Shown piece after piece: positions 15,637 through 34,349 of a stretch of 64,000 nucleotides of DNA (the first letter of the stretch is position 1; every line of letters starts with the position of its first letter). The stretch covers positions 1,519,419 to 1,583,418 of the forward strand of contig NZ_CP053069.1 in the NCBI RefSeq assembly GCF_013003965.1, in the 5' to 3' direction. A program made the position numbers and the translations under genes. The notes under the pieces were generated by a model that had not been told where the DNA came from, made no database searches, and worked only from the letters and a program-made list of their open reading frames with translations. Origin of the DNA: Usitatibacter rugosus. GTDB lineage: Bacteria; Pseudomonadota; Gammaproteobacteria; Burkholderiales; Usitatibacteraceae.

Positions 15637-18429
15637 TTGTTGCGTCGTCTCGCAGGGGTCGTTTCGATGTCAGCCGCTTGCGCCTTCGCGCAGTCGCCCG
15701 GCGGGCCATCGCTCCTCAATCGGCTCCTGTCGCAGCAGTCTCAGCCGCCTGCCTCTCCCGCACCGGTGCCGGCCGCGTCCCCGCGTGGCAACTACGTCGT
15801 CGCCGAACCAACCTCGGGCTTGCCGCCCGGGAGGCTGATCCCGCTGCCGGTGATGGCGGAAGGGCAGGTCCGGGAGCTCGAAGAGGACCTGTCGACGCAC
15901 CTCGAGGTGACGCTCGGCTACGTCCGTTTGCCCGCTGCGCAGGTCGCGCAACTGCCCGCGTTCCCCCCGGCCGTCGTCCCCGCCCTCACGCTCGCCAAGG
16001 GGCCCGCGTCGAGGCGTGAGTTCGTGCGCATCGGCCACCTGTCCTCGCCGCGGAGGTTGCCGCAGCTCTGGATCCAGGGCTTCGTGTCCGAAGCCAGCGC
16101 CGCGCGGCCGAACCATGACATCGACGCGCCGGCCCTCGACAATGCCCTCAAGATGATCCTCGCCGAGCGAACGCGGATCTTCGCGCGGCTGCGCCTGGCG
16201 GACCTTGCGACGAAGACGCTGCCGCTGTCGTACGTGGATTCGGAAGCGGCGCTCTTCGCGCTGCGCGCCATGGGCTATGCGGTCGTCACGGACTCCGAGT
16301 CCCTCTCGCGCGATGATTCATACAAGGGCGACGACGTGGACGCCTTCGAGCTCGCTCGCCCCTCGCAGGCCGCGACAGCGCCGACGTCCGCGGGGGCGGA
16401 AGGAGGATCGCCCTTCGGAGGCGGCACGGCGAGCGCACTCTCCACGCTGCAGCCCGACCAGCAGAATCGCTTCCTGCCGCGCTTCCCGGCGATCCGGAAC
16501 CTGCCGACGACGATCGCGCTCGACCGCCTGCCGCTCGTGGTGAAGATCCCGTCGACCGACAAGACCAACATGGGCCTTGTCGGGGGCGAGCATGCTCCGG
16601 CCGGCCGCGACCAACTGGGCCTCACCATCATCCCGAACGCGGCCTCGCCGCTGTCCGAAACGGTGACGGGCGGATCCTCCGAGCTGCTGGTGATCTACCA
16701 CCCCCAGTACCCGGAGCAGCTGGCGAAAGTATCCCGGCTGATCAACGACACGATCGACCGGCCGGCGCGCCAGGTGTACGTCGAGGGCCTGGTGCTGGAG
16801 ATCAGCCAGGACGGCCTGAAGGAGCTCGGCGTCCAGTGGGACCTCAAGAGCGGCAGCAGCGTGCTTTCCCTGGGCTCGCTGATCCCGGTGCCGCCGGGCG
16901 GCAATGCCCTCAGTTACCTGTACGACCGCAACGCCAACGTGAGCCCGACGCAGCTCATCGCGCGCATCAACGCGCTCGTGCAGACGAACAAGGCGCAGGT
17001 GCTCTCGCGGCCGAGCATCATCACGCTCGACAACCGCCAGGCGACGATTCGCGTCGGCACCGACATTCCGGTGGCCACGTCGACGGACGCGTCCGGAACG
17101 GGCAGCGGTTCCAACCGCGTCGCGTTCTCCTTCCAGTACATCCCGACCGGCATCCTGCTCAACGTGCGGCCGCGCATCTCGGACGACCAGTCCGAGATCA
17201 GCATGCTGATCGATGCGACCGTCTCGGCCACGGTGCCCGGGCAGGACCTGCAGGTGCTCGATCCCGCCACGAAGATCGCGCTCGCATCGGCGCCCACCAT
17301 CTCGACGCGGCGAGTGCAGACCTATGCGCGCATCCTCGACAACCAGTCGTTGATCATCGGCGGGCTCCTATCGCGCAACCAGGTCACGAAGCGCAGCAAG
17401 ACGCCGTTGCTGGGCGACATCCCCTTCGTCGGCGCGTTCTTCAGCCACACCTCGACCGAGGACGACCGGCGCGAGGTGATCATCGTGCTCACGCCCTCCG
17501 TGGTCACGGAGAACATCCGCGAGACCAAGGCGCAGTACCCGAAGGATGACGACCGCTTCGACCAGGTCAATACGGAGCTCTTCAAGTCGCACTACCGGCT
17601 GCGGGCCGAGGACCTCATCGACAGCTCGGACTTCCGCTTCAACGCGCGCTTCCGGGCCTACCGGGACGCGGCCAACCGCGCCATCGAGCGCAAGCCCGAG
17701 CTCGCGACGCGCGCTCCGTTCCCGCAGTTCGCCGGCACGCGCGTGCCCGGCGAGTTCTTCTTCCTGTCGGGCACGGTCTACCGCATGCTCGACCGGATGG
17801 ACGCGGGCGACCCGATCCGCGTCGAGAACCTCAAGTTCTTCGAGCGCTCCCCCGGCGGCGACTTGCGTCCCGCGTCGGTGGCGCAGGCGCTCGCGCGCTA
17901 CGGCGACGGCACGGACCCGGCGAGCTTCTTCGCTCGCAACCCCGGCAAGGCGCTCGCGATGACCTTCCGGCTTTCGCGCACGTCGCTGGCACCCGGCGAC
18001 TCCTTCACCGAAACCATTCCCGAGATCCGTCTCGTGGATTGCGCGGACCGGGCCACCTGGCGGCAACAGCTCTGGGAATTGAGCAAGCCCGACGCGGCGG
18101 GCGTGGCGCGCTTCACCGTCCTCATCCAGGATCCCTCGGATCTGCGCCGGCTACAGCTCGCCTACGCGACGCAGAACACGATCCTCAACAACGGCGGCAC
18201 CGGCGCGATGGTCTTCGACCGCTGGCTGGTGGGCAGGATGGTTCACCTGCAGGAAGTGTCGCCGAGCTGGGAGCGCGTGATGAACGCGCAGATCGCGCAG
18301 TACTTCTTCCTCGGCGAGCACTACTACATGTACTTCATGCAGGAGCACGAGAAGGCGCTGGGGAATCTCGAGGTGGCGCTGCGCGCGCCCGAGATGCAGC
18401 CGCTGCTGGAAGGCGTGAAGCTGCCGTAA
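15637..18429 (+). CDS. Orphan secretin (GspD/PilQ superfamily) with a long C-terminal extension
   Basis: The 930-residue protein begins at TTG (site AAGGGGAAG upstream) with a signal peptide (LRRLAGVVSMSAACAFA-QS). A Pro/Ala linker and N-terminal region precede a secretin core at about residues 370-620, containing RQVYVEGLVLEI, VLSRPSIITLDNRQATI and the signature TPLLGDIPFVGAFF. Residues 620-930 have no similarity I recognise. They include a segment like RVPGEFFFLSGTVYRMLDRMD. Secretins form outer-membrane multimeric channels, but no type II, type III or pilus genes lie nearby. It directly follows the rRNA operon terminator and faces carbonic anhydrase with a 2-base gap. Confidence 0.85.
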   Translation: MLRRLAGVVSMSAACAFAQSPGGPSLLNRLLSQQSQPPASPAPVPAASPRGNYVVAEPTSGLPPGRLIPLPVMAEGQVRELEEDLSTHLEVTLGYVRLPAAQVAQLPAFPPAVVPALTLAKGPASRREFVRIGHLSSPRRLPQLWIQGFVSEASAARPNHDIDAPALDNALKMILAERTRIFARLRLADLATKTLPLSYVDSEAALFALRAMGYAVVTDSESLSRDDSYKGDDVDAFELARPSQAATAPTSAGAEGGSPFGGGTASALSTLQPDQQNRFLPRFPAIRNLPTTIALDRLPLVVKIPSTDKTNMGLVGGEHAPAGRDQLGLTIIPNAASPLSETVTGGSSELLVIYHPQYPEQLAKVSRLINDTIDRPARQVYVEGLVLEISQDGLKELGVQWDLKSGSSVLSLGSLIPVPPGGNALSYLYDRNANVSPTQLIARINALVQTNKAQVLSRPSIITLDNRQATIRVGTDIPVATSTDASGTGSGSNRVAFSFQYIPTGILLNVRPRISDDQSEISMLIDATVSATVPGQDLQVLDPATKIALASAPTISTRRVQTYARILDNQSLIIGGLLSRNQVTKRSKTPLLGDIPFVGAFFSHTSTEDDRREVIIVLTPSVVTENIRETKAQYPKDDDRFDQVNTELFKSHYRLRAEDLIDSSDFRFNARFRAYRDAANRAIERKPELATRAPFPQFAGTRVPGEFFFLSGTVYRMLDRMDAGDPIRVENLKFFERSPGGDLRPASVAQALARYGDGTDPASFFARNPGKALAMTFRLSRTSLAPGDSFTETIPEIRLVDCADRATWRQQLWELSKPDAAGVARFTVLIQDPSDLRRLQLAYATQNTILNNGGTGAMVFDRWLVGRMVHLQEVSPSWERVMNAQIAQYFFLGEHYYMYFMQEHEKALGNLEVALRAPEMQPLLEGVKLP

Positions 18430-18431
18430 GG

Positions 18432-19184
18432 CTACTTGCTCGCCTGTAGCGACCGTCCGTTCAGCGGTTGCGTGGGCCGTGCGTTCATCGGATAGAGCTT
18501 GCCGAACGCGGCGACCTGCGCGGAGGCGATCTTCACCGGGCTCTTCAGCACCAGCCAGCGAACGTCCTCGCTGCAGGGCGGCGTGGTGAGCGATCCTTCG
18601 AACGCGTAGTAGCCGCGGTTCGCCGGAAGCAGCTTCGCGACGTCGATGGTCACGCCCTCGACCGCGACCTCCTTCTCTTTCTCCTTCGGCAGGTTCTTCC
18701 AGATCGCGTCGATCACGTCGCTGTTGCCGCCCTTGTCGAGCAGCACGGCGACCACGGCGAGCTTGCCTTCCGCGTTCCTGTGAACGAGGTGCGCCACCAT
18801 CGCGTGCGGCTTGCCGTTCACCTTCTCCTCGCTCGGATGGTGGAAGTGGAACTGCAGGAGCTCGTACTTCGAGCCGCCGACGTCGATCGTGCTGCCCGGC
18901 GCGTAGTTCACCTGGATCGTGTGGCCGTTGTCGATCACCTTCAGCGCGGAAGGCTTGTAGTCGAACTGGATTGCGGGCAGGTCCGCGGCCTTCGCGCCGT
19001 GGATGTCGATCGGCGACTGGTGCTTGCCAAGCTTGCACGTCGAGAAGGCCGGATCGAGCGTGCCCCATTCCTTCGGACCGCCGTGGCCGGTGTAGCCCCA
19101 GTGGCCGCCTTCGGCCATCGCCGGAATCGCGGCGCAAAGCGCCACTGCGGCGGACGTGAGTGCCAGTGCCTGGACGATCTTCAT
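18432..19184 (-). CDS. Periplasmic alpha-carbonic anhydrase
   Basis: The 250-residue protein starts MKIVQALALTSAAVALCA with a Sec signal cleaved near AMA-EG. Zinc ligands are His 113, 115 and 132 in the family pattern (QFHFHHPSEE ... HLVH). Other conserved blocks are HQSPIDI and GSLTTPPCSE. It interconverts CO2 and bicarbonate in the periplasm. The ATG at 19184 has a good GGGAG site upstream; a longer open frame above it is not coding-like. The upstream gene on the same strand is the nucleotidyl cyclase, 115 bases away. Confidence 0.96.
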   Translation of the reverse strand: MKIVQALALTSAAVALCAAIPAMAEGGHWGYTGHGGPKEWGTLDPAFSTCKLGKHQSPIDIHGAKAADLPAIQFDYKPSALKVIDNGHTIQVNYAPGSTIDVGGSKYELLQFHFHHPSEEKVNGKPHAMVAHLVHRNAEGKLAVVAVLLDKGGNSDVIDAIWKNLPKEKEKEVAVEGVTIDVAKLLPANRGYYAFEGSLTTPPCSEDVRWLVLKSPVKIASAQVAAFGKLYPMNARPTQPLNGRSLQASK

Positions 19185-19299
19185 GGGTGCGCTCCCTGAG
19201 TTTATTTGAGTCTGCGGAGTCTGCGCCGCGCAGCGTCCGCGGCGCAAGCATCGCTTCAGCTTCGCGCCAGATCGAAGCCGGCCTCGCGCGAAGGCGTGA

Positions 19300-22200
19300 T
19301 CAATCCCAGGCGCGCAGCAGCTCGCTCGCGCGCTCGTATTCCCCGCACGCCGGATCGCCGCGGAACGAGCCGCGGGATTCGGCCAGCACCCGGGCCGCAC
19401 CCGTTGCGTCGCCTCGCGTGTGTTCGAGCTGGGCGAGGCGAATGGCCGCGCGCAGCTCGAGCAGCCCCGCGCCCTGGTCTCGCGCGCAAGTGATCGCCTC
19501 GCGGAAGCAATTCGCCGCGCCCTTCGCGTCCGCATCTCGGCCAAGCACGCCTTCGCCTTCGAGGCGGTGAAGCTCCGCGTCGAAGAAGTGTGCGTCCGTG
19601 CGGTCCGAGAAGACGAAGCCTTCCTCGCAAGCCTTCAACACACGGTCGTAGCGGCCGGCACGGAGGTTCGCGTCCGCGAGCAGGGTCGACAGATGGGCGC
19701 AGAAGAGGCCGGAACCGGTCTCCTGGTAGGAACGCAGTCCTTTCTCGATCATCTCGATGCCGCTCTCCGTCTCGCCTTGCGCGGCCATCGCCCAACCGAG
19801 CAGCCCCGTCTCCCACGCGACCCAATACGGAAACCCGCACCGCCGCGCGAGCTCGATCGTCTCGCGTGCGAGTTGCGCGGTCTTTGCCGCGTCTCCGAAG
19901 CTTTGGTAGAGCGCGGCCGACATCCCCGTGGCGTAGGCGAGGCCCAGGTCGAACGACAGCTCGCGCGCCAGCTCGATCGCGCGGGTGCTGTAGTCGACGG
20001 CCTGCCACGGGTTGCCGGCCAGGCCTTCCAGCCATGCGAGGTTCGCGAGCCCGATGACGCCCGGGTCCGACCCCACGGTGAGGATGTGGCGCGTGGACTG
20101 CGCCCGGTCGTAGGCCTCGAGCGATTCGCGCAGCGACGCGCGGCCCGATTCGATGTCGCCCATGCAGAAGCGGCACCAGCCGAGGCGGCGGTTCGCTTCG
20201 ATCAGCTGCAACGGGTTGGTGTCGCGCTCCGCCGTCTCGAGCAGCTCTTCCACCATCGAGCACGCCGTGCGAAGCGGCCCGCGCACGACGTAGAAGCTGT
20301 GCAGGCCGCGAAGCACCGGGAAGAGGTGGCGTGAATCGCCGAGCTGGCCGCAGAGCTCGCGCGCCCGCGCATAGGTCTGTTCCACTTCCGTCGCGGCCGA
20401 GCCCTTCAACGCGCTGAGTGCCGAGCCATAGGCGACCAGCAGCTGCACTTCCTCGAGCGATTTTTCGGAGGACGGCGGGCAGGCCGCGAGCTCGTCCAGG
20501 CCCTTGCGCAGATGCGCACTCGCTTCGACGTTCGCCGACCTCGAGAGAGCCCGTTCGCCGGCGCTGCGCCAGTACCCCGCCGCCTCCTGCGGGCGGCGCG
20601 CCTCCGTGAGGTGATGCGCGACGAGCTCGGGCTGTCCCTCGCAGATCCCCGGGAAGCCCTTCACCAATCCATCGGCGATCATCGCGTGGTAGTCGCGGCG
20701 CTGCGTGCGCAGGAGCGAGCGGTACGCCGTCTCCTGGATCATCGAATGCTTGAAGAGATACGTGGCGGCCGGCGGCGTGCCGAAGCGGAAGAGCAGCTCC
20801 GCGTCCACGAGCTGCGTGAGGCCCTGCTCGAGCTCCGCTTCCGGGAGATCGATGGTGGCCACGAGCAAGCCGTGGGAGAACTCGCGGCCCAGCACCGACG
20901 CGCGCTGCGCGACGCGCTTGGCGGCATTCATGCTGTCGAGCCTCGCCATGAGCGTGGCGTGCAGCGAGATCGGAATCTCCAGCTCGCCCTGTCCCGGTGC
21001 CGGTGCGGCAGCGTCGCGCAACGTCGGCGACTCCAGCACCGCGCGCGTGAGCTCCTCGATGAAGAGGGGCACGCCGTCCGTCCTCAGCGCCACCTGCTCG
21101 CGAAGCGCCGCCGAGAGCGGATCGCCGGCCGTCACGAGCGCGATCATCTCGTGCACGTGCGGTGCGGTGAGGCGATCGAGGCGCAGGTTGGCGACGAGCT
21201 TGTGTGCGCCCCACGGATGCTGGAACTGCGGCCGGAAGGCCGCGAGCAGCAGGATGCGGGCATCTCCGAGCTTGTCGAGGAGCGACGTCACGAGCTCGAG
21301 CGTCGAAGCATCGGCCCAGTGCAGGTCCTCGATCACGATGACGGTCGCGCGATCGGCAGCCAGGCGCATCAACCATTCGCTGAGGAACGCCATCGTGAGG
21401 TCGCGCTGCACGCGGCCCGTGACTTGCGGCGCGGGGTAGCGCGGCGAGTGCGGCAGCGACAGCAGCGCCGCCATCGCCGGCACGACCTCCGCGGGATCCA
21501 TGCCGATGGAGTCCACGATGTAGGCCAGCTGCTCGAGCGGATTCTCGTCCGACTTGTCGAGCCAGCGCGTGAGGAAATCGACGACCGGATGGAACGCGCT
21601 GTTGGTGAAGAACGGCGAGCACTGGAAGGACATCTTCAGGTGATCGCTGCCCGCGAGGTTGTCGGCGAACGCACGCACGAGGCGCGACTTGCCGATGCCC
21701 GGCTCGCCGCTGATGGCGACGGCCTGACCTTTGCCTTCCAGCGCGTCGTGCCAGCGCGCTTCCAGGAGCGCCAGCTCCTCGGTGCGGTTGGCGAGCGGCG
21801 TCACATGAGGAGTGGCTCCCAGCGAGCCCGGTGCAACCCGCGCCGCGGACAGCAGCTCGAAGATCCGCACGGGCCGCGACAGGCCGCGGATGGGCGTGTC
21901 GCCCACATCCCTGAAGTTGAAAGAGGCTGAGGCCAGCGCCTGGGTCACGCCGCTCACGAGAACCCCATCGGGCGGGGCAAGGCTCATGAGGCGCGCCGAG
22001 ACGTTCGGCGTCTCTCCCAGCACGCCCGCTTCCTCGCGAGCCGTGCCGCGGGCAAGATCGCCCACGACCACGAGTCCGGTGTGCACGCCAACCCGCACCT
22101 GGATGTGCGTGCCGCGTTCGGAGATGCGGCGCACGCGTTCGACGGTCTCCAGGGCCGCATGCAGTGCCCGCACCGGGTCGTCGTCGTGGGCTCGCGGGTA

Positions 22201-22512
22201 GCCGAAGTAGGCGACGATGCCATCGCCGACGTAGCGCGCCACGAAGCCTCCGAAGCTCGTCGTCGCGTTGGACACCACGTCCCGGTACGCGAGGATCACC
22301 TCGCCCAGCTCTTCGGGATCGAGGCGCTCCGAGAGGGCCGTGGAGCCCACGAGGTCGCAGAACATGACCGTGAGCGAGCGGCGCTCGGCCGCATGGGCCA
22401 TGCTCTTGTGGAAATCGAAGCCGCACTCGCCGCAGAAGCGGCGCGGGAGCCGCTCGAAGCTGCCGCAGCCCGGGCAACGGATACCGCCGCCGTTGGCAGG
22501 AATATCGGTCAT
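19300..22512 (-). CDS. Nucleotidyl cyclase / AAA (STAND) ATPase / TPR regulator
   Basis: About 1,070 residues. The N-terminus is a zinc ribbon (Cys 13, 16, 27, 30). A class III cyclase domain follows with metal Asp 53 (FCDLVGST) and Asp 97 (YVGDGIVAYFG). Next is a large ATPase with Walker A GEPGIGKS near 262-269 and Walker B VIVIEDLHWAD. The C-terminal half is an Ala/Leu-rich helical repeat region like TPRs. The family is thought to couple cAMP or cGMP synthesis to signal sensing. I chose the ATG at 22512 (MTDIPANGG); an upstream in-frame start would leave the divergent radical SAM gene almost no promoter. The input signal is unknown. Confidence 0.9.
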   Translation of the reverse strand: MTDIPANGGGIRCPGCGSFERLPRRFCGECGFDFHKSMAHAAERRSLTVMFCDLVGSTALSERLDPEELGEVILAYRDVVSNATTSFGGFVARYVGDGIVAYFGYPRAHDDDPVRALHAALETVERVRRISERGTHIQVRVGVHTGLVVVGDLARGTAREEAGVLGETPNVSARLMSLAPPDGVLVSGVTQALASASFNFRDVGDTPIRGLSRPVRIFELLSAARVAPGSLGATPHVTPLANRTEELALLEARWHDALEGKGQAVAISGEPGIGKSRLVRAFADNLAGSDHLKMSFQCSPFFTNSAFHPVVDFLTRWLDKSDENPLEQLAYIVDSIGMDPAEVVPAMAALLSLPHSPRYPAPQVTGRVQRDLTMAFLSEWLMRLAADRATVIVIEDLHWADASTLELVTSLLDKLGDARILLLAAFRPQFQHPWGAHKLVANLRLDRLTAPHVHEMIALVTAGDPLSAALREQVALRTDGVPLFIEELTRAVLESPTLRDAAAPAPGQGELEIPISLHATLMARLDSMNAAKRVAQRASVLGREFSHGLLVATIDLPEAELEQGLTQLVDAELLFRFGTPPAATYLFKHSMIQETAYRSLLRTQRRDYHAMIADGLVKGFPGICEGQPELVAHHLTEARRPQEAAGYWRSAGERALSRSANVEASAHLRKGLDELAACPPSSEKSLEEVQLLVAYGSALSALKGSAATEVEQTYARARELCGQLGDSRHLFPVLRGLHSFYVVRGPLRTACSMVEELLETAERDTNPLQLIEANRRLGWCRFCMGDIESGRASLRESLEAYDRAQSTRHILTVGSDPGVIGLANLAWLEGLAGNPWQAVDYSTRAIELARELSFDLGLAYATGMSAALYQSFGDAAKTAQLARETIELARRCGFPYWVAWETGLLGWAMAAQGETESGIEMIEKGLRSYQETGSGLFCAHLSTLLADANLRAGRYDRVLKACEEGFVFSDRTDAHFFDAELHRLEGEGVLGRDADAKGAANCFREAITCARDQGAGLLELRAAIRLAQLEHTRGDATGAARVLAESRGSFRGDPACGEYERASELLRAWD

Positions 22513-22583
22513 GACGGCTTGACGGCGCGGGCGTGCGTCCGCCACGCTTGCGTACCCCACCGGCGCAGGGAGGCGACCGGACG

Positions 22584-23594
22584 ATGAGGCCTCGCTACGA
22601 GACCCCGCCGCACCTCACCATCTCCATCACGGACACCTGCAACCTGGCTTGCAAGTGGTGCTATGCCGATTGCGGCAGCAAGCGGGAGCGCCGTCCGCTC
22701 GAGACCGGGGAGTGGCTTTCCTTCATCGACTACCTGGCCGAGAACGGCTTCATCCAGGTGTACTTCGAAGGCGGCGAGCCGTTCCATCTGCGCGGCTTCA
22801 TGCGCATCCTCGCGCACGCCACGCCCAGGATGATGACCTTCGTGAGGACCAACGGAACGCTGGTCACTCCGCGCCTCGCATCGCGCCTCGCAAAGCTCGG
22901 CGTGGGCCGGATGCTGGTCGACATCCAGGGCGCCAACGCTGGCACCCACGATGGGCTCACCGGCAGCCCCGGCAGCTTCGACAAGGCTTGCGCCGCGGTC
23001 CGGCGCCTCGCGGGCGAGGGCATAAAGACCGACGTACTCGTGATCCTCAACCGCCGGAACGCCGGCGAGCTCCAGGCGCTGGCCGACCTCGCGCGCGAGA
23101 TGGGCGCCAAGCGCCTGGGCATCCTGCGGCTCTATCCCCTCGGCCGCGCCAAGCGCGCGTGGACGGAGCTTTCCCTGTCCATCGAGGAGCAGCAGGCCGC
23201 GGTGACCGCCGTTCGTCCCGGCGAGGGCTTCGAGATCATGCAGTCCTGGCATCCGCGCGACCGCAACTGCTGCTGGCAGGCGGCCGCCGTGAACGCGACG
23301 GGCGATTCCATCGGCTGCATGTACCTGCGGGAATACGTGAACTTCGGCAACGTCCTCGAGACGCCGCTGCTCGAGACGTGGAGCACGCATCCGCTCTACC
23401 AGCAGCTGCGCAAGGGCAACGTGAAGAGCTCGTGCTCCTCGTGCAACGAGAACGACGGGACCCAGGGCGGCTGCCGCTCGACGGCCTACGCCTTCCGCGG
23501 CTCCTGGGACGCCCCGGACCCTTTCTGCTCGCATCTCAACGATGGGATCGATTTGCGTGTCCTCCCGATACGATTGCTACCGCAGGACGCCTGA
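22584..23594 (+). CDS. Radical SAM / SPASM-type maturase
   Basis: The 336-residue protein has the CxxxCxxC cluster at Cys 19, 23, 26 (CNLACKWCY) and a GGEP-like turn (EGGEPFHL). Its C-terminal auxiliary-cluster Cys follow CX9GX4C, then CX2CX9C, then X17C, close to the SPASM pattern. This architecture belongs to enzymes such as PqqE and AnSME that modify peptides or proteins. The ATG at 22584 has AGGGAGG upstream. The 3' end overlaps the PqqD-like gene by about 50 bases. No small precursor peptide is visible beside it, so the substrate is unknown. Confidence 0.92.
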   Translation: MRPRYETPPHLTISITDTCNLACKWCYADCGSKRERRPLETGEWLSFIDYLAENGFIQVYFEGGEPFHLRGFMRILAHATPRMMTFVRTNGTLVTPRLASRLAKLGVGRMLVDIQGANAGTHDGLTGSPGSFDKACAAVRRLAGEGIKTDVLVILNRRNAGELQALADLAREMGAKRLGILRLYPLGRAKRAWTELSLSIEEQQAAVTAVRPGEGFEIMQSWHPRDRNCCWQAAAVNATGDSIGCMYLREYVNFGNVLETPLLETWSTHPLYQQLRKGNVKSSCSSCNENDGTQGGCRSTAYAFRGSWDAPDPFCSHLNDGIDLRVLPIRLLPQDA

Positions 23595-23880
23595 CGTCCG
23601 CGTCCGCGAAGTTCCGGAAATGGAATTCTGCCTCGCCTATGTTCCGGCGCGGGCCGAGCTCTACCGCCTCAATCCGTCGGCGTGGTTCGTGCTGAGGATG
23701 TGCGATGGGCTCACCGAGCCGGAGTTGGCGCAGGCCTACCACGGGGCGCTGGAGCCCGTGCTGAGCCTCGAGGACTGCCGCCGCGAAGTGCGCGGCGGCC
23801 TGGAGAGCCTGCTGGGGATGGGAATCATCGAGAAGGTGCACGCGGTGCCACGCACCGCGAAGGTGACGAAGCGCAAATAA
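23542..23880 (+). CDS. PqqD-like peptide-binding protein
   Basis: About 112 residues with a typical PqqD/RRE pattern: YRRTPDVRVREVPEM, then AELYRLNPSAWFVLRMCDG and a helical C-terminus. The family delivers a peptide substrate to a radical SAM/SPASM partner. The gene overlaps the radical SAM gene, implying coupled translation. The start could be the ATG at 23542 or a GTG at 23557 (VSSRYDC); I kept the ATG. The basic tail is KVTKRK. Confidence 0.82.
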   Translation: MGSICVSSRYDCYRRTPDVRVREVPEMEFCLAYVPARAELYRLNPSAWFVLRMCDGLTEPELAQAYHGALEPVLSLEDCRREVRGGLESLLGMGIIEKVHAVPRTAKVTKRK

Positions 23881-23893
23881 AGGAGAAAAGGCG

Positions 23894-24460
23894 ATGGCCA
23901 TGAAGAGTGACAAGAAAGATGTCGAGCAGATTCTCAAGAGACGGGGCCGGGATCAGTCACCGCAAGTCGCGGTGAGCGCGACCGAGATCCGGTCGTGCGG
24001 CGTGATGGGCAAACCCGAGCCGATTCCGATGGGCACGCCCGGTGTGCTGGGCGGCATCGTGATCATCTGGGAGTTCGAGGTCCAGTTCGAGGACCTCCCG
24101 GCCTTCCGGACCTTCCTCGACAACAACGAGGTGCTGCTGCGCCAGGGAATCTCGACGCTCGATGCCCAGGCGCAATACCTCGGAACCTACATGCTGCACG
24201 AAGGCGGAACGCCGTACTTCCGCACGATCTGGGCCTACAAGGAATTGCAGACGATGCTCGACCTTTGGGCCAACCTCACCAGCGGCAACGTGAGGAACAT
24301 GGTCAAGGAGCTGCGGAGCTTCTGGCTCAAGGATCCGGGCCGGAGCGAGGCGCGGTGGGCACCCGCCCGGCGCAACATCATGGGACAGAATCACGATCAC
24401 GATGATGCCTTCACGCAATTGACGGTCGAGGCCGCGCAGGAGCTGGCCGCCGGGAGCTGA
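23894..24460 (+). CDS. Unknown protein of radical SAM/PqqD operon (possible alpha-beta barrel fold)
   Basis: The 188-residue protein lies 13 bases after the PqqD-like gene, with AAAGGAG upstream of its ATG. Residues 1-50 are polar and probably flexible, with a single Cys in EIRSCGVMGKP. Residues 50-145 alternate strand and helix (GGIVIIWEFEVQF, LPAFRTFLDNNEV, PYFRTIWAYKELQTML), suggestive of a dimeric ferredoxin-like alpha-beta barrel. I do not recognise the family. It could be the substrate or a partner of the maturase, both by position only. It ends one base from the facing subtilisin gene. Confidence 0.75.
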   Translation: MAMKSDKKDVEQILKRRGRDQSPQVAVSATEIRSCGVMGKPEPIPMGTPGVLGGIVIIWEFEVQFEDLPAFRTFLDNNEVLLRQGISTLDAQAQYLGTYMLHEGGTPYFRTIWAYKELQTMLDLWANLTSGNVRNMVKELRSFWLKDPGRSEARWAPARRNIMGQNHDHDDAFTQLTVEAAQELAAGS

Positions 24461-24461
24461 T

Positions 24462-27368
24462 TCAAGGACGTACCTCCAGGCTGGCCCCGCCGACGATCTG
24501 GCCCCCGGAGCGCTGTGCGACATGCACGCGCCGGGGGACGGCGGCGGCGGGAGCGCCGGTCACGGAGATCGACGCCCCCACAGGTTGCCCGGGGCCCAGG
24601 ACCAGGCGGGGAACGTAGAGCGGGCCTTGTCCCAGGGTGAGCTCGACCTCGCCGCCCGCCACATCGACGATCCTGGCCTCGCCGGTCACCTGCCCGCGAC
24701 GTGCGAGCGGCAGCGCCGATTGCGGCAGGCGAAGCACGACCTGCCCGCCCCCGAGCTCGGACGAGACCTCGAGGCCGGTCGATTCGCTGGCAGCAGCGCC
24801 CGCGACGGTGAACTGCATCGTCCACGGCGACGGATGGGACGCGGCGACGACCTGCACCGTCCTCATCGCCAGGTTGTTGCGCGTGCCCAGCAACGCCCAG
24901 GGTTGCGAAGCACCGAGCCACGGATCCTGCGCATTCTGGAGCTGCACGATGAGCGTGAGCGGCCGATCGGCGGGCCCCGCGGGGGGCGCGAAGCCGAACT
25001 CGAGCTCCGCGAATTGTCCGGGAGGCAGGGAGGCAATCTGCTGGGTGCTACCGGGTTGCGTGAACGCACCGCCCGTCGCCGCGACGAAAAGGCCGGCCGT
25101 CTGCCATGCGTCCATCGGCACATAGGTCGCACCTTCGGCCCACGCCAGGTGGACCTGCGTGTTGGCAGCCACCTGCGTGCCCCGGTTGCGCACGCGGACG
25201 CGCACGATGTTCGTTGCCGCGCCGCCGGGGCCTCTCGAAGGATTGGCGACCGGGACGCGCGCCATGTCGAGGATCTCGATATCGGGTGAAGCCCAGATGA
25301 CCGTCGCGACATTCGGTTCGAGTCCGGTATCGGACGGGTCATCCTGGATCCACACGTCGACCGCGCGCGGTGAGTTGCCGATGAGCGGACCGACCTGCAG
25401 GTATCCGAACCCGAAGCCGCGGTCGGGGATCGTCAACTGCTGGTTGCCCGCCGTGTCGGCCAGCAGCTGCTTCAAGTGGGCCCAGGTGAGGCTGAGCCCA
25501 TGGCGCTGGAACAGGCACGCACAGATTCCCGCCACGTACGGGGCGGAGAAGCTGGTCCCCGATTTCTCGCCGTACAGGGATTGAGGCGAGTCGATTCCGC
25601 GGTTGCAGGACCAGGGCACGCGCACGTTTTCGCCGCAGGCCGCGACCTCCGGCTTCACGCGGCCGTCGCGCGTGGGGCCCAGTCCGCTGGTGCTCGCGAG
25701 CTGCGGCGGAACCTTGCCGTCGTGGTTCCCGACGGTGATCGCATGGCGCGCCGTCCCCGGCGTCCCGAGCGTGAGCGACTTGTCGTCGACCCACGTCGTG
25801 AAGAAGACGTGCGCGATCTCCTTCATGGTCACCGGATCGTAAAGCCGGTTGTTGCGATCGATCCAGGCGTGGAAGGTCCCCGATCCGTTCACCTGGGTGG
25901 CATGGACCTCGATGAGCGTCACGCCCTGCGGCATGGCCGCACCCGCGGGCACGAGAAAGAGGACGCTCACGCGGTTGGCACCGGAGATTCCGGTCTCGGT
26001 CGAGTCGACGACGACCTGGACTCCGCTCGGGGTGATCGCCGTCACCGCGTCGCCCGGGGAAACCGTGAGCGTCAGTGGCGGGGGGCCGGGCACGGTGATC
26101 GTCACGTCGAAGCGATCGTCGTCGTCGTACCAGATCTCCACCGCGTCGCTCAGCACGGCCTGGGCATCGCAACTCATGTGCAACGTCGTCGAGGTGCCCT
26201 GCGCGAGCGTGCTGGTGGCGTGGCATGCGGTCCCCGTGGAATTGCCCGCCGAGAGCGTGATGGCCCGGCCCGGCTTCTCCAGCAACGCGTCGAGGAAACG
26301 CTCTCCCATCGAGGTCCCGTCATGCGACCCGAGGTTGTCGCCGTTGCTCAGGTTCACGACGCACGGCAGGCCCAGCGCTTCGGCTCGCGCGAAGATGTAG
26401 CTGAAGGCATCCATCACCTGCACGTTGTCGGCGAGCGCGTTGGCGGAATGGGGATCGGCCTGCGCGACGAAGATGATGTCGGCACCCGGCGCGCTTCCCA
26501 CGCAGGTGGGATCCGCCCGTCCGTTCCCCGTGGCGATGCCGGCGACGGCCGTGCCGTGCGACCCGACTTCTCCCCCGGTGTTGTGACGCACCTGCTGGTA
26601 GGCGGGGGTCCCGGGGAACGCGGAAAGCTGGTCGTCGATGTCCTTCCGGGTGTATTCGACGCCATATCCGAAGGAGGGGCTGATCTCATTGCGCACCGGC
26701 GCGAGCGTCTGGTCCCACAGGCCGAGCACGCGCGTGGCAAACCCCGGCTGCTTGCGGAAATCGGGATGGTAGAGGTCGAGCGTGGAGTCGATCACCCCGA
26801 CGATGGCACCCGTTCCGTTGAAGTCCGGCGAGGCACGCGCGGCGGTCCTCGGCGCCAGGACCTGGGTCGTGTCCGTGGAGGAGCCGGTCGGAACCACGCT
26901 GCGGGCGAGCTCGACATACCGGACTTCGGGCGCCTCCTCGAGGCGCGCGATCGCCGACTGCGGGACGAACGCCGTGAAGACGTCGCCCGCCTGGCTGCGC
27001 ACCGTCACGCCGAGCGCCGCGAGGCGGTCCGGCGTTGCGTCGGCGAGGATGAACGCGGAAAAAACGGGGTCGCCGGTCTTGCGCACCGAATCCGGCAGCG
27101 CGCCCTCGGCGAGCAGCCCGGCCGACATCGGGGCGAACAGGCGACCGTAGATCTCCCGGAGCTTGTGGATCATCGGCTCCTGCGCCCTCGCGGGGAAGGA
27201 CGCGAGGTCCTCGTTGACCGCCTTCAGCTCGGCGCCGATGTCCTCGATGCGCGAAAGCTCCCGGGACACCAGCTCGCGCCGTTCTTCCGCGTCCAGCTCG
27301 AGGAGCATGGCAAGGCGGGGATCGAGCTTGGGCCTCGGCTGGCGTTTGGCGGGTGCCGTCGGGGGCAT
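24462..27368 (-). CDS. Large subtilisin-like (S8) serine protease without signal peptide
   Basis: The 968-residue protein has the S8 triad: Asp in GVIDSTLD near residue 191, His in GSHGTAVAG near 271, and Ser in SGTSFSAPYVAG near 606. A large insert lies between His and Ser. Residues 1-170 look like an inhibitor-type prodomain preceded by a charged helical segment. After the catalytic domain come beta-rich regions of about 300 residues. No signal peptide or membrane helix is seen, so it may act in the cytoplasm or leave by a non-Sec route. It converges on the radical SAM operon, which raises a possible processing role. Confidence 0.93.
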   Translation of the reverse strand: MPPTAPAKRQPRPKLDPRLAMLLELDAEERRELVSRELSRIEDIGAELKAVNEDLASFPARAQEPMIHKLREIYGRLFAPMSAGLLAEGALPDSVRKTGDPVFSAFILADATPDRLAALGVTVRSQAGDVFTAFVPQSAIARLEEAPEVRYVELARSVVPTGSSTDTTQVLAPRTAARASPDFNGTGAIVGVIDSTLDLYHPDFRKQPGFATRVLGLWDQTLAPVRNEISPSFGYGVEYTRKDIDDQLSAFPGTPAYQQVRHNTGGEVGSHGTAVAGIATGNGRADPTCVGSAPGADIIFVAQADPHSANALADNVQVMDAFSYIFARAEALGLPCVVNLSNGDNLGSHDGTSMGERFLDALLEKPGRAITLSAGNSTGTACHATSTLAQGTSTTLHMSCDAQAVLSDAVEIWYDDDDRFDVTITVPGPPPLTLTVSPGDAVTAITPSGVQVVVDSTETGISGANRVSVLFLVPAGAAMPQGVTLIEVHATQVNGSGTFHAWIDRNNRLYDPVTMKEIAHVFFTTWVDDKSLTLGTPGTARHAITVGNHDGKVPPQLASTSGLGPTRDGRVKPEVAACGENVRVPWSCNRGIDSPQSLYGEKSGTSFSAPYVAGICACLFQRHGLSLTWAHLKQLLADTAGNQQLTIPDRGFGFGYLQVGPLIGNSPRAVDVWIQDDPSDTGLEPNVATVIWASPDIEILDMARVPVANPSRGPGGAATNIVRVRVRNRGTQVAANTQVHLAWAEGATYVPMDAWQTAGLFVAATGGAFTQPGSTQQIASLPPGQFAELEFGFAPPAGPADRPLTLIVQLQNAQDPWLGASQPWALLGTRNNLAMRTVQVVAASHPSPWTMQFTVAGAAASESTGLEVSSELGGGQVVLRLPQSALPLARRGQVTGEARIVDVAGGEVELTLGQGPLYVPRLVLGPGQPVGASISVTGAPAAAVPRRVHVAQRSGGQIVGGASLEVRP

Positions 27369-32039: not shown

Positions 32040-34349
32040 ATGGCTAACGACAGCAACAAGACCGACGAATCCTCGCTGCCGGACATTACCCGGCTCGCCC
32101 GCGATGGACGGCGCGCGGATCCCGATGCGACGGTCGTGATGCCCCCGTCCGCAGCGGCCGACAGCGATCCCACGGTAGTCCTGGCACGCCCGCCGGAGCC
32201 CGAGCCCAAGCCGGAAGACACCACGCCGCTCGCCCTTCCCGCGGGCTTCCGCCTCTTCGAGTATCGCGTCGACAAGGTGCTGGGCCAGGGCGGCTTCGGC
32301 ATCACCTACCTCGCGAGCGACGTGAACCTGAATTCACGCGTCGCCATCAAGGAGTACCTCCCCGAGCAGTTCGCCTGCCGCACCGAGGACATCTCGGTGG
32401 CGCCCCGGACGGTGACCGACGGAGACTTCTTCGAGCGCGGGCTGGAGAGCTACCTCGTCGAGGCCCGCACGCTCGCGACGTTCCGCCATCCGAACATCGT
32501 GAAGGTCGCGCGCTTCTTCGAGGCGCACAACACCGCGTACATGGTGCTCGAGTACGAGCATGGCGAGTCGCTGAAGAAGTGGTGGCCCCGGCACAAGGCG
32601 ATGTCCGAGATCGACCTCCTCGGCTTGCTGGCACCGCTGCTGGATGGGCTGGCCGTCGTGCACGAGGCCGGCTTCCTGCATCGCGACATCAAGCCCGACA
32701 ACATCTACGTTCGCGATGCGGATGGCTCGCTCGTGCTCCTGGATTTCGGAGCCGCGCGCCAGGTTACCAAGGCGCGAAGCGAAGAGGACAACTTCGTCAC
32801 GCCCGGCTACGGGCCGATCGAGCAATACGTGCTGGCCGAGCAGGGGCCGTGGACGGACGTCTACGCGCTCGGGGCGACGCTCTACTGGATGATCTGCGGC
32901 AAGCGCCCGCAGCAGGCGCCCGACCGCATGGTTTTTCCGGACCCCATGGTGCCCGCTCTCGAAATGGGCAAGGGCCGGTACAGCCTCGAGTTCCTCGCCG
33001 CCATCGACTGGGCGTTGAAGCCCGAGACACAGGACCGGCCGCGCGACATCGCCGAATTCCGCGAGGCGCTCTTCGCGGCGCATCCGTCGATCGGCAACCT
33101 GCAGGAGGCGCTGCGCGCCGGTGAAAAGGGCGGCGGGCGGATCGGCCAGATGCTCCTGCATCCGGGCACTTGGCCGCTCGCGGTCAAGATGACGATCGCG
33201 CTGGTGCTCACGGCGCTCACACCCATGCTGATCGTCGCGTACTACAACTACACGTCGAGCGTGGCGCGGGTGAGCGCTGCGGAGCTTCGCAATCTCGAGC
33301 AACTCTCCAGCAGCGTGTCCGGCCGCCTGGGCCAGCTGATGGCGGACAGCAGCGGGCTGGCACTCTTCCTCAGCCGCGATCCCGAGTTCGCCGCGTTGCT
33401 GCAGAAGCCGACCGAAGCGAGCAAGGCCAAAGTGCTCGCCACATTGAAGGATGTCGTCACCGCGAATCCGGACGTGCAAGTCGCGACGATCCTGAACGCC
33501 GACGGCAAGGCGCTGGTGTCGAGCTACCCCGGTGTCGCCGGCGGCAACTTCGGCTACCGGCAGTATTTCCTCGAGGGCATCCGCGGCCGCCGGTACGCCA
33601 CCAGCATCATCGTCGGCGCCACGGCGGGCGAACCGGGCGTGTTCTTCGCCAACCCGGTCAAGGATTCGGCCGGGAAGGTGATCGGGGTCGTGACGCTGCG
33701 CGTGAAGGGCTCGTCGATCTCGTCGATCCTCGAGGCCGCGCGCGAGGAATCGGATCGCAGCGCGATGCTCGTCGATGCCGACGGCATCATCGTCCATCAC
33801 ACCGACAAGTCGCAGCTCTACAAGAGCCTCGTGACACTGCCCGCGGACAAGGCGGGCGAGATCGTCTACGACCAGCGCTTCCGCCGCGAGAAGATCGACA
33901 CGGTCAACATGCCGGACCTGGCGGCGGCCGTGACCGGCGCCAAGGCGCGCGGCTACGTGGACTATCGTTCCACGATCTCCGGCAAGGAAGAGATCGCCGG
34001 CTTCGCGCCCGTGCCCGGCAACGAGTGGACGGTCGTGATGACCGAATCTCGCGAGGTGTTCGAGAAGCCGCTGCGGCGGGTCCTGGTGAACGTCATCACC
34101 AGCGTGCTGCTGGTGGGGCTCGTGTTCCTGGTGCTCGCCGTGTGGTTCGCGCGGAAGATCGTGCGCCCGATCGAGTCGCTGACGGCGGCCGCCCATGCGC
34201 TCAAGAGCGCGGACTACGACAAGGCCAACGTGCCGGTGACTTCCAGCGACGAGATCGGGCAATTCATGCGGGTCTTCAACACGATGATCGACGTGTTGCG
34301 CCAGCGGGAGCGCGAGCTCGCCGCGGGCGGGCGCGGGAAGCGCCGGTAG
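32040..34349 (+). CDS. Receptor Ser/Thr protein kinase with Cache sensor and HAMP domain
   Basis: The 769-residue protein has an N-terminal kinase with a Gly loop (GQGGFG), invariant Lys (VAIKEYL), catalytic HRDIKPDN near 215-222 and DFGAAR near 236. A membrane helix at about 380-400 leads into a dCache-like extracytoplasmic domain of about 270 residues. A second helix follows, then HAMP (KIVRPIESLTAAAHALK). Kinases usually carry PASTA or no sensor here, so Cache plus HAMP after the kinase is unusual. The residues before the kinase are Pro/Asp-rich. No phosphatase gene is adjacent. It is divergent from the GNAT/sensor run. Confidence 0.93.
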   Translation: MANDSNKTDESSLPDITRLARDGRRADPDATVVMPPSAAADSDPTVVLARPPEPEPKPEDTTPLALPAGFRLFEYRVDKVLGQGGFGITYLASDVNLNSRVAIKEYLPEQFACRTEDISVAPRTVTDGDFFERGLESYLVEARTLATFRHPNIVKVARFFEAHNTAYMVLEYEHGESLKKWWPRHKAMSEIDLLGLLAPLLDGLAVVHEAGFLHRDIKPDNIYVRDADGSLVLLDFGAARQVTKARSEEDNFVTPGYGPIEQYVLAEQGPWTDVYALGATLYWMICGKRPQQAPDRMVFPDPMVPALEMGKGRYSLEFLAAIDWALKPETQDRPRDIAEFREALFAAHPSIGNLQEALRAGEKGGGRIGQMLLHPGTWPLAVKMTIALVLTALTPMLIVAYYNYTSSVARVSAAELRNLEQLSSSVSGRLGQLMADSSGLALFLSRDPEFAALLQKPTEASKAKVLATLKDVVTANPDVQVATILNADGKALVSSYPGVAGGNFGYRQYFLEGIRGRRYATSIIVGATAGEPGVFFANPVKDSAGKVIGVVTLRVKGSSISSILEAAREESDRSAMLVDADGIIVHHTDKSQLYKSLVTLPADKAGEIVYDQRFRREKIDTVNMPDLAAAVTGAKARGYVDYRSTISGKEEIAGFAPVPGNEWTVVMTESREVFEKPLRRVLVNVITSVLLVGLVFLVLAVWFARKIVRPIESLTAAAHALKSADYDKANVPVTSSDEIGQFMRVFNTMIDVLRQRERELAAGGRGKRR

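What the first reader, a model, noticed from the sequence alone, without database searches (positions are those of the whole stretch)
22584..27368. Radical SAM/SPASM - PqqD - unknown protein operon facing a subtilisin: candidate modification and maturation system
Seen: a SPASM-like enzyme with a complete CX9GX4C...CX2CX9C...X17C pattern overlaps a PqqD-like gene, then a 188-residue protein, and one base later a 968-residue cytoplasmic-looking S8 protease. Known: radical SAM/SPASM with PqqD modifies peptide substrates, and subtilisins can remove leaders. Inference: the 188-residue protein may be the substrate or partner, and the protease may process it. No short precursor peptide is visible.
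Basis: partly seen in the sequence, partly recalled or inferred. Interest (0 to 1): 0.68.

Follow-up and report, generated by a model that had tools for sequence, protein, structure and literature searches.

The report
Radical-enzyme cassette with unusual protein substrate
A rare four-gene bacterial cassette pairs a radical enzyme and its peptide-holding helper with an unnamed protein, which is probably what they modify, and with a signalling ATPase; a protein-cutting enzyme sits beside it in some species only.

Summary
The four genes are real and correctly placed. The finding missed the gene that completes the unit: a divergent zinc-ribbon/cyclase/AAA-ATPase/TPR protein (19300-22560, minus). 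Its only full-length NCBIfam match is TIGR03903 'TOMM kinase/cyclase', without the kinase and below cut-off.

I found twelve relatives, in Mesorhizobium, Reyranella, Roseomonas, a Microvirga plasmid, a MAG labelled Rhodospirillales and five genomes of one unnamed genus. All twelve keep the same cassette: divergent cyclase-ATPase, then rSAM/SPASM, PqqD and the 188-residue protein.

The 188-residue protein has a disordered N-terminal tail with an invariant P-x7-E-[VI]-R-[ST] motif (13/13). The tail is its most constrained segment in five of six pairs compared. A predicted NIPSNAP-like alpha/beta-barrel domain follows. This suits a protein presented to the PqqD-rSAM pair by its tail, more than a free peptide precursor.

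The protease is not core: absent from 10 of 13 loci, and its nearest relative found has no rSAM gene nearby. But the slot recurs: subtilisin in the window and Roseomonas, a thermolysin-like metalloprotease in one Reyranella.

Verdict: a genuine, apparently unnamed variant of rSAM/SPASM-PqqD maturation. That the protein is modified, at which residue and to what end are inferred.

The parts
19300..22560 (-). Divergent zinc-ribbon / class III cyclase homology / AAA_16 ATPase / TPR protein (alternative ATG start at 22512); core partner
   Evidence: Pfam Guanylate_cyc 65.8 bits, AAA_16 70.8, TPR_12 42.8; TIGR03903 511 bits vs cut-off 705.75, aligned from model position 282 so no kinase part; homologue in the same place in all 12 relatives; cyclase metal Asp pair, Asn and Arg kept in 13/13, Walker A recognisable in 13/13
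22584..23594 (+). Radical SAM/SPASM enzyme, 336 aa
   Evidence: relatives 53-60% identical, next full-length hits about 31%; SPASM lacks the CX5C cysteine in 13/13
23542..23880 (+). PqqD-like (RRE) protein, 112 aa, overlaps the rSAM gene
   Evidence: PF05402 24.5 bits, over cut-off; homologue in 13/13 loci
23894..24460 (+). 188-aa protein, proposed substrate: disordered N-terminal tail + NIPSNAP-like domain + variable C-terminal tail
   Evidence: family of 13 with rSAM and PqqD; models and fold searches
23960..23995 (+). Invariant P-x7-E-[VI]-R-[ST] motif (residues 23-34) of the 188-aa protein
   Evidence: 13/13 sequences; segment 21-45 has the lowest dN/dS in 5 of 6 pairs
24047..24397 (+). 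Predicted NIPSNAP-like dimeric alpha/beta-barrel domain (residues 52-168)
   Evidence: VIA-align Z 9.2 (window protein) and 10.2 (Mesorhizobium homologue) to 1vqy; Foldseek best E 2.2e-3 and 2.2e-4; Pfam NIPSNAP only 14.7 bits, below the 22.3 cut-off
24462..27368 (-). Cytoplasmic-looking S8 protease, 968 aa; accessory, not core
   Evidence: PF00082 119 bits; S8 beside the cassette also in Roseomonas L009, M4 metalloprotease in Reyranella L008; absent beside 10 of 13 cassettes
24465..25382 (-). C-terminal 306-aa region of the protease, shared with the Roseomonas protease
   Evidence: 27% identity, E 3e-12; no match in the plasmid collection

Best explanation
A radical-SAM protein-modification cassette. 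PqqD recognises the disordered N-terminal tail of the 188-aa protein (motif P-x7-E-[VI]-R-[ST]) and presents it to the radical SAM/SPASM enzyme, which alters a residue in or next to that tail while the NIPSNAP-like domain carries it. The divergent cyclase/AAA-ATPase/TPR protein switches the system on or reads out its product. Where a protease is present it acts downstream as an accessory, either trimming the modified protein or serving as the effector that the modified protein controls. Shown: the conserved four-gene linkage, the motif and its constraint, the predicted fold, the protease being optional. Inferred: that the 188-aa protein is modified, where, and what the output is.
For: Same four genes in the same arrangement in 13 of 13 loci, with no fifth gene shared by the first eight loci apart from shadow frames of these four. 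In five pairwise comparisons the 188-aa protein diverges most or nearly so (window vs Microvirga: rSAM 58, CYC 42, PqqD 41, 188-aa 32%). The P-x7-E-[VI]-R-[ST] motif is invariant in 13 sequences, of which the seven in the first alignment are only 18-31% identical to the window's. Segment 21-45, predicted disordered (pLDDT 23-38 in both models), has dN/dS 0.00-0.10 in six pairs against 0.12-0.81 for residues 46-140; a plain enzyme would be expected to show the opposite. An N-terminal position fits leader recognition by PqqD-type RRE domains (own knowledge of RiPP systems). One copy per genome.
Against: No biochemical evidence. The 188-aa protein is much larger than usual rSAM/PqqD substrates and has a folded domain. 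The motif holds no Cys, Tyr or Trp, the commonest targets of SPASM enzymes, so the tail could be a docking site rather than the modified site. The dN/dS windows are short (25 codons) and several pairs share ancestry. Both structure models rest on seven sequences and are modest (mean pLDDT 48 and 61).
Confidence: 0.5

Rival explanations
1. The 188-aa protein is a folded partner or enzyme (NIPSNAP/dimeric alpha/beta-barrel type) that docks on the rSAM-PqqD pair through its tail; the real substrate is another molecule made elsewhere, for example a small molecule or tetrapyrrole.
For: The fold matches are to NIPSNAP, antibiotic-biosynthesis monooxygenase and heme-degrading proteins. The best-scoring NCBIfam models of the rSAM proteins include NirJ2 and AhbD heme enzymes.
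Against: The presumed active domain is less constrained than the disordered tail. Heme-type rSAM enzymes do not need PqqD (own knowledge). All rSAM models score far below their cut-offs.
Confidence: 0.27
2. Qhp-like maturation: the rSAM enzyme cross-links the 188-aa protein and the subtilisin then cuts off its N-terminal leader, as QhpD and QhpE do on QhpC.
For: A cytoplasmic subtilisin next to an rSAM enzyme and its protein substrate is a published precedent: QhpE removes the 28-residue leader of QhpC after QhpD cross-links it (PMC7876137). Subtilisin here and in Roseomonas.
Against: 10 of 13 cassettes have no adjacent protease. Qhp cross-links use Cys, but the window protein has a single Cys. 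The tail is the most conserved part, odd for a piece to be discarded, though leaders can be conserved. No secretion gene is conserved in the cassette.
Confidence: 0.12
3. A signalling or conflict system: the cyclase/AAA/TPR protein is the sensor, the rSAM-modified protein is the signal, and the protease is an effector that varies between species. (Overlaps with the best explanation; differs in what the output is.)
For: A STAND-like ATPase with TPRs plus cyclase, rSAM/SPASM, a diverging small protein and swappable peptidases resemble the peptide-processing systems of Kaur et al. 2020 (PMC7159879). The protease slot holds S8 or M4; the M4 gene is the only M4 in that genome. One cassette lies beside a PDC-S37 defence gene, another beside an integrase.
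Against: No vWA, MoxR or VMAP gene was seen and no protease in most loci. Defence-island or integrase context in only two of 13 loci. The window protease matches best a generic PADLOC subtilase model.
Confidence: 0.25
4. The protease is a chance neighbour unrelated to the cassette.
For: Convergent orientation in the window; separate in 10 of 13 loci; its nearest relative found has no rSAM nearby.
Against: The window genome has four S8 genes, the Roseomonas genome two, and the L008 genome one M4 gene, each with one of them in this slot. With about one such protease per 1500 genes and one slot, three hits in about six lineages is roughly 1e-8; allowing any peptidase (assumed 2% of genes) it is still about 1e-4 (my estimate, post hoc).
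Confidence: 0.15

Closest known systems
Qhp operon (QhpC substrate, QhpD rSAM, QhpE subtilisin) of quinohemoprotein amine dehydrogenase
   Same: rSAM enzyme acting on a protein-sized substrate encoded in the same operon; cytoplasmic subtilisin for leader removal (PMC7876137)
   Different: Here a separate PqqD, a NIPSNAP-like substrate candidate with little Cys, a cyclase-ATPase-TPR partner, and the protease is optional
FxSxx-type peptide-processing systems of Kaur et al. 2020
   Same: rSAM/SPASM, a rapidly diverging small protein, a zincin-like metallopeptidase, ATPases with TPRs, link to cyclic nucleotides (PMC7159879)
   Different: No vWA/VMAP/MoxR genes seen; PqqD present; conserved motif is N-terminal, not C-terminal; peptidase optional and of two unrelated types; mostly alphaproteobacteria rather than actinobacteria
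PqqA/PqqD/PqqE and MftA/MftB/MftC
   Same: rSAM/SPASM with a PqqD-type partner; MftC and PqqE models match the rSAM protein over nearly its whole length
   Different: Scores far below both cut-offs (139.8 vs 265; 112.3 vs 381); no short precursor peptide; SPASM ligand set differs
TOMM kinase/cyclase fusion protein TIGR03903
   Same: The divergent protein matches it along cyclase, ATPase and TPR parts, 392-628 bits in six loci tested
   Different: No kinase part, below the 705.75 cut-off; no heterocyclase gene found in the cassette

Membership tests
rSAM/SPASM enzymes | CX3CX2C radical SAM motif and SPASM domain | tested here: met
   Pfam PF04055 and PF13186 over cut-off; CX3CX2C in 13/13
rSAM/SPASM enzymes | Two all-cysteine auxiliary cluster sites (typical, not strictly defining: PqqE deviates) | tested here: not met
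   CX5C cysteine is Thr/Ser in 13/13 and the last Cys is Asp in 6/13; in PqqE one AuxII ligand is Asp (PMC10452713)
RiPP systems with PqqD-type RRE | PqqD-like recognition protein with the modifying enzyme | tested here: met
   PF05402 over cut-off, 13/13 loci
RiPP systems with PqqD-type RRE | Short precursor peptide (leader plus core) | tested here: not met
   Almost no intergenic room in the window; the candidate substrate is 177-212 aa with a predicted folded domain
RiPP systems with PqqD-type RRE | Substrate actually modified | not testable with these tools
   needs expression and mass spectrometry
Qhp-type maturation | Subtilisin always with the rSAM and its substrate | tested here: not met
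   absent beside 10 of 13 cassettes
Qhp-type maturation | Several Cys in the substrate for thioether cross-links | tested here: not met
   one Cys in the window protein, no Cys conserved across the family
TOMM kinase/cyclase systems (TIGR03903) | Score over the curated cut-off, kinase domain included | tested here: not met
   511 bits vs 705.75, aligned from position 282; also below cut-off in five relatives tested
FxSxx-type peptide-processing systems | rSAM/SPASM with a small diverging protein and a metallopeptidase | tested here: inconclusive
   rSAM and diverging protein in 13/13; metallopeptidase only in L008
FxSxx-type peptide-processing systems | C-terminal FxSxx motif in the small protein | tested here: not met
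   C-terminal tails vary between lineages with no such motif
NIPSNAP | Sequence match over the Pfam cut-off | tested here: not met
   14.7 bits vs 22.3; no Pfam NIPSNAP match in five relatives
NIPSNAP | Dimeric alpha/beta-barrel fold | tested here: inconclusive
   two low-to-middling models both rank NIPSNAP structures first, Z 9.2 and 10.2, with other barrel families close behind

The most novel reading that the evidence does not exclude
A signalling or defence system in which a radical SAM/PqqD pair post-translationally modifies the disordered tail of a folded barrel protein, under control of a cyclase-STAND-TPR sensor, with species-specific proteases as effectors.
Probability: 0.22. Interest if true: 0.82.

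Novelty: new variant of a known kind. Interest (0 to 1): 0.58.

Why it matters
If the 188-aa protein is modified, it would be a radical SAM/PqqD target that is a folded protein rather than a disposable peptide, with a short conserved tail as the handle. That would give a cleanly testable system with four genes and one obvious mass-spectrometry experiment, and would link this chemistry to a cyclase-ATPase-TPR regulator. The recurring but swappable protease raises the question whether proteolysis is the output.

Tried and rejected
Single-sequence search of genome contigs with the 188-aa protein found nothing; the rSAM pair alignment found the family. A first genome-wide scan for the tail motif used one base too many and is discarded; the corrected scan gave 36 matches in the own genome, of which 30 were loaded and read in frame: only the 188-aa gene looks like an N-terminal tail of a real gene, one other (L054) is unconvincing, six were not read. 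Looked for shared ancestry of the L008 metalloprotease and the window protease C-terminus: none seen. Rfam search of 19-28 kb: nothing. Promoter and terminator scan: no more than chance. Profile search of solved structures by sequence with the 188-aa family gave only weak TPR/moesin matches, not believed. Papers joining NIPSNAP with radical SAM: none in the library; TIGR03903 by name: none.
Full report
Observation. The finding's four genes are all present at the stated coordinates. The rSAM gene (22584-23594) carries Radical_SAM and SPASM domains over their cut-offs; the PqqD gene (23542-23880) overlaps it by 53 nt; the 188-aa gene (23894-24460) follows; the S8 protease (24462-27368, minus) converges on it with one base between the stops. 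The cysteine pattern is as written, but it is not a full SPASM set: the CX5C cysteine is Thr or Ser in all 13 relatives and the last cysteine is Asp in 6. PqqE is a known case in which one cluster ligand is Asp (PMC10452713).

What was missed. Divergent from the rSAM gene lies a 1086-aa protein (19300-22560, minus) with a zinc ribbon, a class III cyclase domain, an AAA_16 ATPase and TPRs. It matches TIGR03903, TOMM kinase/cyclase, at 511 bits, from model position 282 on and below the 705.75 cut-off. The cyclase metal-binding Asp pair, Asn and Arg are kept in 13 of 13, and a Walker A motif is recognisable in all.

Relatives. A Microvirga plasmid gave the first relative: there the PqqD and 188-aa genes are not in the PLSDB gene table. 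A scan with the aligned rSAM pair gave six more at 53-60% identity, with the next hit at 31%: two Reyranella MAGs, a Rhodospirillales MAG, two Mesorhizobium and Roseomonas acroporae. A profile of the 188-aa protein gave five genomes of one unnamed genus of the same phylum as the window. All 13 loci have the divergent cyclase-ATPase, the rSAM, the PqqD and the 188-aa gene (the L009 copy was read from the sequence and translated; the L008 copy by eye, and by clustering). The family profile matches once in each genome that carries it. The cassette is rare: counting the window's own genome, 1 of 369 genomes sampled from the window's class (single-sequence query), 1 of 100 from its order (same query), 3 of 398 from its phylum (profile).

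The 188-aa protein. Two AlphaFold2 models, of the window protein (mean pLDDT 48) and of a Mesorhizobium homologue (mean pLDDT 61, domain 71-91), agree: short helix, disordered stretch to about residue 50, then beta-alpha-beta-beta-alpha-alpha-beta. Both rank a NIPSNAP structure first: 1vqy, Z 9.2 over 101 residues at 3.6 A, and Z 10.2 over 99 residues at 2.7 A, with other dimeric alpha/beta-barrel families close behind. By sequence the Pfam NIPSNAP match is below cut-off. All 13 sequences share P-x7-E-[VI]-R-[ST] at fixed spacing in the disordered tail. In six pairs, segment 21-45 has dN/dS 0.00-0.10 against 0.12-0.81 for residues 46-140; it is the lowest segment in five of six pairs (in L004/L005 residues 1-20 are slightly lower). 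This is the main reason for reading the tail as the working part.

The protease. Ten of 13 cassettes have no protease next to the 188-aa gene: Microvirga, L004 and L005, L006, L007 and the five genomes of the unnamed genus (no match to the window protease or to the L008 metalloprotease; larger frames also read by eye for L034, L039, L040 and L041). The nearest relative found of the window protease (44%, S. medicae plasmid) lies next to type IV secretion genes with no rSAM gene annotated in the 18 kb seen. Yet Roseomonas L009 has an S8 protease directly downstream on the same strand, split in two frames in the draft assembly, sharing a C-terminal region with the window protease (27%, E 3e-12); and Reyranella L008 has an 823-aa thermolysin-type protein in that slot (M4_C 35.4 bits, HEXXH visible). 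In genome-wide counts the window genome has four S8 genes, the Roseomonas genome two, and the L008 genome a single M4 gene, which is this one; none of the other eight genomes scanned has M4. So the slot attracts proteases beyond chance, but they are accessory.

Mechanism. The best reading is rSAM modification of the 188-aa protein's tail, guided by PqqD and regulated by or reporting to the cyclase-ATPase-TPR protein. Steps shown: linkage, motif, constraint, predicted fold. Steps inferred: modification, site, regulation, role of the protease. Precedents are Qhp (rSAM plus subtilisin on a protein substrate, PMC7876137) and the peptide-processing systems of Kaur et al. (rSAM/SPASM, small diverging protein, metallopeptidase, TPR ATPases, PMC7159879). 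Membership in either is not met on tested features.

Limits. No experiment. Loci come from uneven sampling; relatedness within the five-genome genus and within the pairs L004/L005 and L006/L007 means about six independent lineages. The organism of the window was not identified. The probability estimates for the protease slot are mine, made after the fact, and assume gene densities.

Noticed in passing
window 18432-19190 (minus): Alpha-type carbonic anhydrase-like protein with a signal sequence (by eye), directly downstream of the cyclase-ATPase gene on the same strand; suggestive of bicarbonate sensing, but no such gene was among the clusters shared with the relatives.
   Followed up: no
window 15637-18429 (plus): Secretin-like 930-aa protein by eye.
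   Followed up: no
L041 9144-13844 (minus): The cassette of this genome lies beside a 1566-aa protein matching PADLOC PDC-S37 at 1796 bits.
   Followed up: partly
L006 12146-13534 (plus): Integrase-like gene directly downstream of the Mesorhizobium cassette (Arm-DNA-bind_3 over cut-off), suggesting an integrated element.
   Followed up: partly
L003 9641-10609 (plus): PqqD and 188-aa genes of Microvirga ossetica plasmid NZ_CP016618.1 are absent from the PLSDB gene table (which is incomplete).
   Followed up: yes
L009 12270-15559 (plus): Roseomonas S8 protease split over two frames; frameshift or assembly error not resolved.
   Followed up: no
L042 7788-10124 (plus): Closest S8 relative of the window protease, 778 aa, on a conjugative S. 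medicae plasmid next to type IV secretion genes, with methyltransferase, amidohydrolase and DUF6065 genes downstream.
   Followed up: partly
window 32040-34349 (plus): Ser/Thr protein kinase-like gene with a membrane sensor part by eye; it also matched the kinase part of TIGR03903.
   Followed up: no
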